NCBI GenBank assembly: GCA_947453475.1
Contig: CANGGK010000003.1
Location: forward strand, 1-50,890
Direction: 5' to 3'
Length of the DNA stretch: 50,890 bases
Source of the DNA: Microbacteriaceae bacterium
Lineage (GTDB): Bacteria > Actinomycetota > Actinomycetes > Actinomycetales > Microbacteriaceae
Positions 27,894 through 28,719 of the stretch are shown here, in pieces (within the stretch, counting starts at the first letter, position 1; the number at the start of each line of letters is the position of its first letter). Both the position numbers and the translations under genes were made by a program. The notes beneath the pieces were generated by a model. It made no database searches, was not told the DNA's origin, and saw only the letters and a list, made by a program, of their open reading frames with translations.

Positions 27894-28719
<826 letters not shown>

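What the first reader, a model, noticed from the sequence alone, without database searches (positions are those of the whole stretch)
28034..28036. In-frame amber codon inside ribH that also creates a ribosome site for the distal part
Lumazine synthase is intact in sequence and frame on both sides of one TAG at codon 49, where the family normally has Tyr. TAG ends several other genes here, so it is not a reassigned codon. A TAC/TAT to TAG change makes AGGAG, placed 9 nt before an in-frame GTG at 28049, so the distal 100 residues could be re-initiated. Substrate-binding residues lie on both sides, so a working enzyme would need two fragments, suppression or readthrough. Without RibH the riboflavin pathway is cut, although the FMN riboswitch and other rib genes look intact. 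A sequencing or assembly error is the simplest alternative.
Basis: partly seen in the sequence, partly recalled or inferred. Interest (0 to 1): 0.8.

Follow-up and report, generated by a model that had tools for sequence, protein, structure and literature searches.

The report
Lone stop codon in ribH gene
In one freshwater actinobacterium assembly the vitamin B2 gene ribH carries a single premature stop that none of the relatives examined has at that place; it is most likely a base error in the assembly, possibly a recent dead allele, and probably not a new way of making the enzyme.

Summary
In detail: ribH (27890-28351, +) is open and conserved on both sides of one in-frame TAG at 28034-28036, codon 49 of 153, with AGGAG at 28035-28039 and an in-frame GTG at 28049. 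It is the only ribH found in the 83%-complete genome. TAG is a normal terminator (251 of 704 conserved genes); none of 41 tRNAs found reads it.

The stop is private. All 120 listed nearest proteins have Tyr. Of 56 genus genomes with ribH only this one has a premature stop. A near-identical strain, inferred from a shared contig length, has an intact RibH. The gene is otherwise constrained (67 silent, 2 amino-acid differences in 152 codons). It was the only clean premature stop in a survey of 80% of the genome.

Most likely a consensus error (0.6), otherwise a recent dead allele (0.3). Restart, readthrough or a split enzyme lack support; 0.5-5% of Tyr-to-TAG changes here would make a similar restart site by chance. 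Raw reads would decide.

The parts
27890..28351 (+). ribH, lumazine synthase gene, 153 codons, interrupted at codon 49
   Evidence: PF00885 171.4 bits and TIGR00114 132.5 bits when read with X at the stop
28034..28036 (+). in-frame TAG, codon 49
   Evidence: Tyr in 23 of 23 other genus loci read
27890..28036 (+). proximal open frame, 48 aa and TAG
   Evidence: PF00885 26.8 bits
28035..28039 (+). AGGAG, Shine-Dalgarno-like, partly formed by the TAG
28049..28351 (+). distal open frame, 100 aa from GTG
24655..24824 (+). FMN riboswitch, the only one found in the genome
24788..26062 (+). ribD; listed GTG start lies inside the riboswitch, the TIGR00326 match begins at residue 84, so the true start is probably later
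26062..26658 (+). ribE, riboflavin synthase
26658..27893 (+). ribBA; its stop overlaps the ribH start (ATGA)
28348..28719 (+). 123-aa protein gene, fast-evolving, no family found; its start overlaps the ribH terminator (ATGA)

Best explanation
The TAG at codon 49 of ribH is a single private base difference seen only in this one assembly, most likely a sequencing or consensus error, so the living population probably encodes an ordinary whole lumazine synthase. Shown: the stop, its absence at that place from every relative read, strong constraint on the rest of the gene, and no other clean premature stop in the surveyed 80% of the genome. Inferred: that the base is wrong in the assembly and not a real rare allele. 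If the base is real, the predicted outcome is a 48-residue fragment plus at most a little restarted or read-through product, that is, loss of function.
For: Private: 0 of 23 other genus loci read, 0 of 70 named records read, 0 of the 120 listed nearest proteins and 0 of the 55 other genus genomes with ribH have it. The exact 100-aa form is listed on 1 contig, of 50,890 bases, the window's own length. An intact RibH (P0003) and a neighbour protein with 1 of 123 residues different (P0135) both stand for 4 contigs with the same longest length, 332,654. Constraint: 67 silent against 2 amino-acid differences in 152 codons versus G002. The genus keeps the gene: 22 of 22 good genomes. No importer recognised.
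Against: No reads were available, so error is not shown directly. The assembly is otherwise clean by this test: 1 premature stop over 828 query genes and 270,830 aligned residues, 0 frameshifts; at a per-base error of 1e-6 only 0.03 spurious stops would be expected, at 3e-5 0.83. K83 is a second private residue (119 Q and 1 R in the 120 nearest), and ribH holds 3 of 4 differences from the nearest linked strain where 14% is expected (P 0.01, or 0.05 without the stop), which would fit relaxed constraint in a truly broken gene; counts are small and chosen afterwards.
Confidence: 0.6

Rival explanations
1. The TAG is real: a very recent nonsense mutation has likely killed ribH in this strain, which would then need riboflavin from its neighbours or be a minor lineage.
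For: The mild excess of amino-acid differences in ribH; only one such stop in the surveyed genome, so no sign of a generally error-rich assembly; a decayed ribH exists in one genome of another family of the order (G045), and 10 of 349 good family genomes lack ribH.
Against: Near-identical strain inferred intact; 22 of 22 good genus genomes keep ribH; strong constraint elsewhere in the gene; no importer recognised.
Confidence: 0.3
2. Restart: the ribosome stops at TAG and restarts at GTG 28049 behind AGGAG, and the 48- and 100-residue pieces would assemble into a working enzyme.
For: AGGAG, 9-nt spacing and in-frame GTG are present. A solved lumazine synthase assembly of two separate chains covering 11-84 and 85-151 of this protein is listed (28ro), and circular permutants with ends at 84/85 and 119/120 assemble (PMC11912573, passages).
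Against: 263 of 5,152 Tyr codons would give a comparable site by chance, at least 26 with a 5-nt match; GTG is the commonest codon at this conserved Val anyway (43 of 70). The known breaks are engineered and elsewhere in the chain. Seen in one assembly only.
Confidence: 0.04
3. Readthrough or suppression: a tRNA inserts an amino acid at TAG often enough to give some whole RibH.
For: The residue at this position is variable in the wider family (7 residue types in 70 loci), so many insertions might be tolerated.
Against: No CTA anticodon among 41 tRNAs; TAG ends 251 of 704 conserved genes; two uninterrupted release factors of the PF03462 family. 17% of the genome is missing.
Confidence: 0.04
4. 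TAG is reassigned to an amino acid in this genome.
For: None beyond this one codon.
Against: 251 of 704 conserved genes end in TAG; no matching tRNA found; only one gene in the survey holds an internal TAG.
Confidence: 0.01

Closest known systems
Lumazine synthase RibH (PF00885, TIGR00114)
   Same: Sequence, operon position and FMN riboswitch.
   Different: One in-frame TAG at codon 49, absent from all relatives read.
Spurious or very young nonsense allele in a metagenome-assembled gene
   Same: One base, no other damage, intact in relatives.
   Different: Nothing seen that sets it apart; reads were not available.
Riboflavin auxotrophy of acI strain A4 (PMC5301498, passages)
   Same: Freshwater streamlined actinobacterium with a question over riboflavin synthesis.
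   Different: A4 lacks the whole operon and has a PnuX-like gene behind its only FMN riboswitch; here the operon stands and no PF04973 gene was found.
Engineered split or permuted lumazine synthase (28ro, listing; cpAaLS, PMC11912573, passages)
   Same: Show that the fold can tolerate a broken chain.
   Different: Engineered; breaks near 84/85 and 119/120, not at 49.

Membership tests
Lumazine synthase (PF00885) | Family match over the curated cut-off | tested here: met
   171.4 bits against 26.7, read with X at the stop
Lumazine synthase (PF00885) | One uninterrupted reading frame | tested here: not met
   TAG at codon 49
Decayed pseudogene | Further damage or loss of conserved residues beyond one stop | tested here: not met
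   No frameshift; 67 silent against 2 amino-acid differences versus G002. Contrast G045, with frameshift, stop and altered motif
Amber reassignment or programmed recoding | Amber-reading tRNA | tested here: not met
   None of 41 tRNAs; genome 82.8% complete
Amber reassignment or programmed recoding | TAG rare or absent as terminator | tested here: not met
   251 of 704
Restarted two-piece enzyme | Ribosome site and in-frame start just after the stop | tested here: met
   AGGAG 28035-28039, GTG 28049; chance level 0.5-5%
Restarted two-piece enzyme | Conserved in related strains | tested here: not met
   Only this assembly
Restarted two-piece enzyme | Both pieces made and active together | not testable with these tools
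   Needs expression or proteomics
Riboflavin auxotroph with importer | Importer gene, often behind an FMN riboswitch | tested here: inconclusive
   No PF04973; one PF12822 match of unassigned substrate; one FMN riboswitch, on the rib operon; 17% of the genome missing
Assembly or sequencing error | Reads disagree with the consensus base | not testable with these tools
   No reads held

The most novel reading that the evidence does not exclude
The strain really carries the TAG, and the same base change that breaks ribH builds the ribosome site that rescues it: a 48-residue piece and a 100-residue piece restarted at 28049 assemble into a working two-chain lumazine synthase, and the restart keeps ribosomes moving into the overlapping downstream gene.
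Probability: 0.04. Interest if true: 0.75.

Novelty: not a real feature. Interest (0 to 1): 0.13.

Why it matters
If it is an error, it is a caution: one base in one assembly can fake a vitamin auxotrophy in an otherwise intact pathway. If the base is real, it would catch riboflavin loss at its first step in a genus whose good genomes all keep ribH (22 of 22). If the two pieces worked, it would be a natural split of an enzyme rescued by its own nonsense mutation.

Tried and rejected
Recurrent stops in the genus: searches flagged a TAA inside ribH in G009, G017 and G059. Reading them showed the ordinary terminator, two or three codons earlier than in the window, so this was rejected. My first translation of the relatives read 17 of 30 loci on the wrong strand; redone.

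Reassigned amber: rejected on terminator use and tRNAs.

Poor assembly overall: the survey against G006 (genes of at least 100 aa) flagged 5 stops in 1,098,658 of 1,367,749 bases. Besides ribH, two lie in one antisense shadow, one in another, and one in an over-extended start. The reverse survey flagged 3 stops at 2 places in G006, each over a better-scoring gene in another frame or strand. A looser first pass on 917,594 bases gave 46 and 62 raw stops and 2 frameshift-like pairs in G000 (0 in G006); most looked like over-extended starts or shadows, but they were not resolved one by one, and the two pairs did not pass the stricter.

Genus members without ribH as auxotrophs: 11 of 67 have no match over the cut-off, one of them 97% complete with 8% contamination (G073). 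In the sample four genus members lack both ribH and the RibA domain, but they are 76-88% complete, so missing contigs would explain this as well.

Riboflavin importer: one PF12822 match by six-frame search (35.9 bits, cut-off 30.7), but the translated gene gave no family at E 1e-3. Substrate left unassigned.

Papers: seven searches showed no report of this case in their listings. Only passages of PMC5301498 and PMC11912573 were read; the rest were seen as listings.

Full report
What is there. The window is contig C3 of a 1,367,749-base, 76-contig assembly, 82.8% complete. The genus is most likely Rhodoluna: a genus member's 725,811-base contig (G028) has the length of a record titled Rhodoluna sp. 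(L035). At 24655-28719 lie an FMN riboswitch, ribD, ribE, ribBA, ribH and a 123-aa protein gene, with ATGA overlaps at both ends of ribH. ribH is 27890-28351. Its codon 49 is TAG (28034-28036), and the frame is open and conserved on both sides.

Is the stop shared? Not in anything read. Of 29 relative loci besides the window's own, 23 of 23 from the genus have Tyr there, and the 6 from other families of the order are also open. Of 80 named genome records 70 could be read automatically and none is interrupted in the stretch checked, about 120 codons; 10 were dropped because the motif search failed. The 120 listed nearest proteins, of 7,990 matches scored, all have Tyr. Of 67 genomes of the genus, the window's included, 56 have ribH over the cut-off, and only the window's has a premature stop. 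The exact 100-aa distal form is listed on one contig, of the window's own length; its cluster counts 8 member sequences that the tool does not show. A decayed ribH exists in one genome of another family of the order (G045): it has a frameshift, a TAG near its end and an altered conserved motif, which is what real decay looks like.

Is there an intact copy in the same species? Probably. The neighbour gene at 28348 evolves fast: 21-39 of 121-122 residues differ between this genome and its four nearest relatives. A database protein differs from it at 1 of 123 residues and stands for 4 contigs, the longest 332,654 bases (P0135). An intact RibH that differs at codon 49 and at two other residues also stands for 4 contigs, the longest 332,654 bases (P0003). 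That both lie on the same contig is inferred from the equal numbers. A second pair, P0136 and P0022, shares a contig length of 5,215 bases.

Selection. Against G002 the gene differs at 67 codons silently and at 2 by amino acid, of 152 compared. For G005, G007 and L034 the counts are 55 and 6, 67 and 6, and 56 and 7. The gene was under strong constraint until very recently, or still is. One detail points the other way: K83 is also private (119 Q and 1 R in the 120 nearest), and against the nearest linked strain ribH holds 3 of the 4 differences in ribH plus neighbour, where 14% would be expected (P = 0.01, or 0.05 without the stop). The counts are small and were chosen after the fact.

Is the assembly bad? 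In 1,098,658 bases of it, compared with the complete genome G006 (839 matches, 828 query genes, 270,830 residues, genes of at least 100 aa), ribH is the only conserved gene with a clean premature stop, and no frameshift passed. One event is compatible with a per-base error near 3e-5 (0.83 expected) and less so with 1e-6 (0.03 expected). This count alone does not separate an error from a real mutation.

Could it still work? TAG is a normal terminator (251 of 704 conserved genes; 12 of 34 in the window). None of 41 tRNAs has a CTA anticodon. Two uninterrupted release factors of the PF03462 family are present (which is RF1 was not assigned). Restart: 263 of 5,152 Tyr codons in conserved genes here would, as TAG, stand next to a Shine-Dalgarno-like match of at least 4 nt followed by an in-frame start, at least 26 with a 5-nt match. 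The AGGAG follows from TAG before GAG, and GTG is the commonest codon at this conserved Val (43 of 70). Lumazine synthase tolerates a broken chain in solved forms (28ro in the listing; permuted forms with ends at 84/85 and 119/120), but no call shows this at codon 49. From recall, not from a call: the active site uses residues from both pieces and from two neighbouring subunits.

Could it be a true loss? 22 of 22 good genus genomes keep ribH. No PnuC-family gene and no second FMN riboswitch were found; one ECF substrate component stands beside transporter genes with no substrate assigned. In acI strain A4, predicted to be an auxotroph, the operon is gone and a PnuX-like gene stands behind the only FMN riboswitch (PMC5301498, passages). 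Nothing like that is seen here, though 17% of the genome is missing.

Verdict. The amber is in the assembly, was found nowhere else, and stands in a constrained gene of a pathway that the genus keeps. A consensus error is the most likely cause (0.6), a real recent dead allele second (0.3), and readthrough, restart or a split enzyme together about 0.1. Reads over 28034-28036 would decide.

Noticed in passing
L265 (G045:C42:16500-20500), minus strand, about 17978-18372 of the contig: A decayed ribH (frameshift, late TAG, altered TPHFDY motif) beside an uninterrupted RibA domain in a genome of another family of the order, 91% complete.
   Followed up: partly
L161 (G000:C12), 2155-6881, minus strand: An ECF-type transporter set: substrate component, fused ATPase and transmembrane component, next to a 174-aa gene with a weak, below-cut-off SCO2322-family match and a repeat protein. 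Substrate not assigned.
   Followed up: partly
window 28348-28719: A fast-evolving 123-aa protein gene of no known family, its start overlapping the ribH terminator; 117 database relatives at E 1e-10, none with a Pfam domain.
   Followed up: partly
window 28782-33758, minus strand: A 1,658-residue open frame that looks like a subtilisin-like protease followed by many fibronectin-type repeats (own reading, no family search).
   Followed up: no
Microbacteriaceae sample: 10 of 349 good-quality genomes have no lumazine synthase match, four of them in one genus (g41); possible riboflavin auxotrophs.
   Followed up: no
G037, G038, G055 (order relatives): Three genomes 99-100% complete without a match to lumazine synthase or the RibA domain; likely riboflavin auxotrophs.
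   Followed up: no
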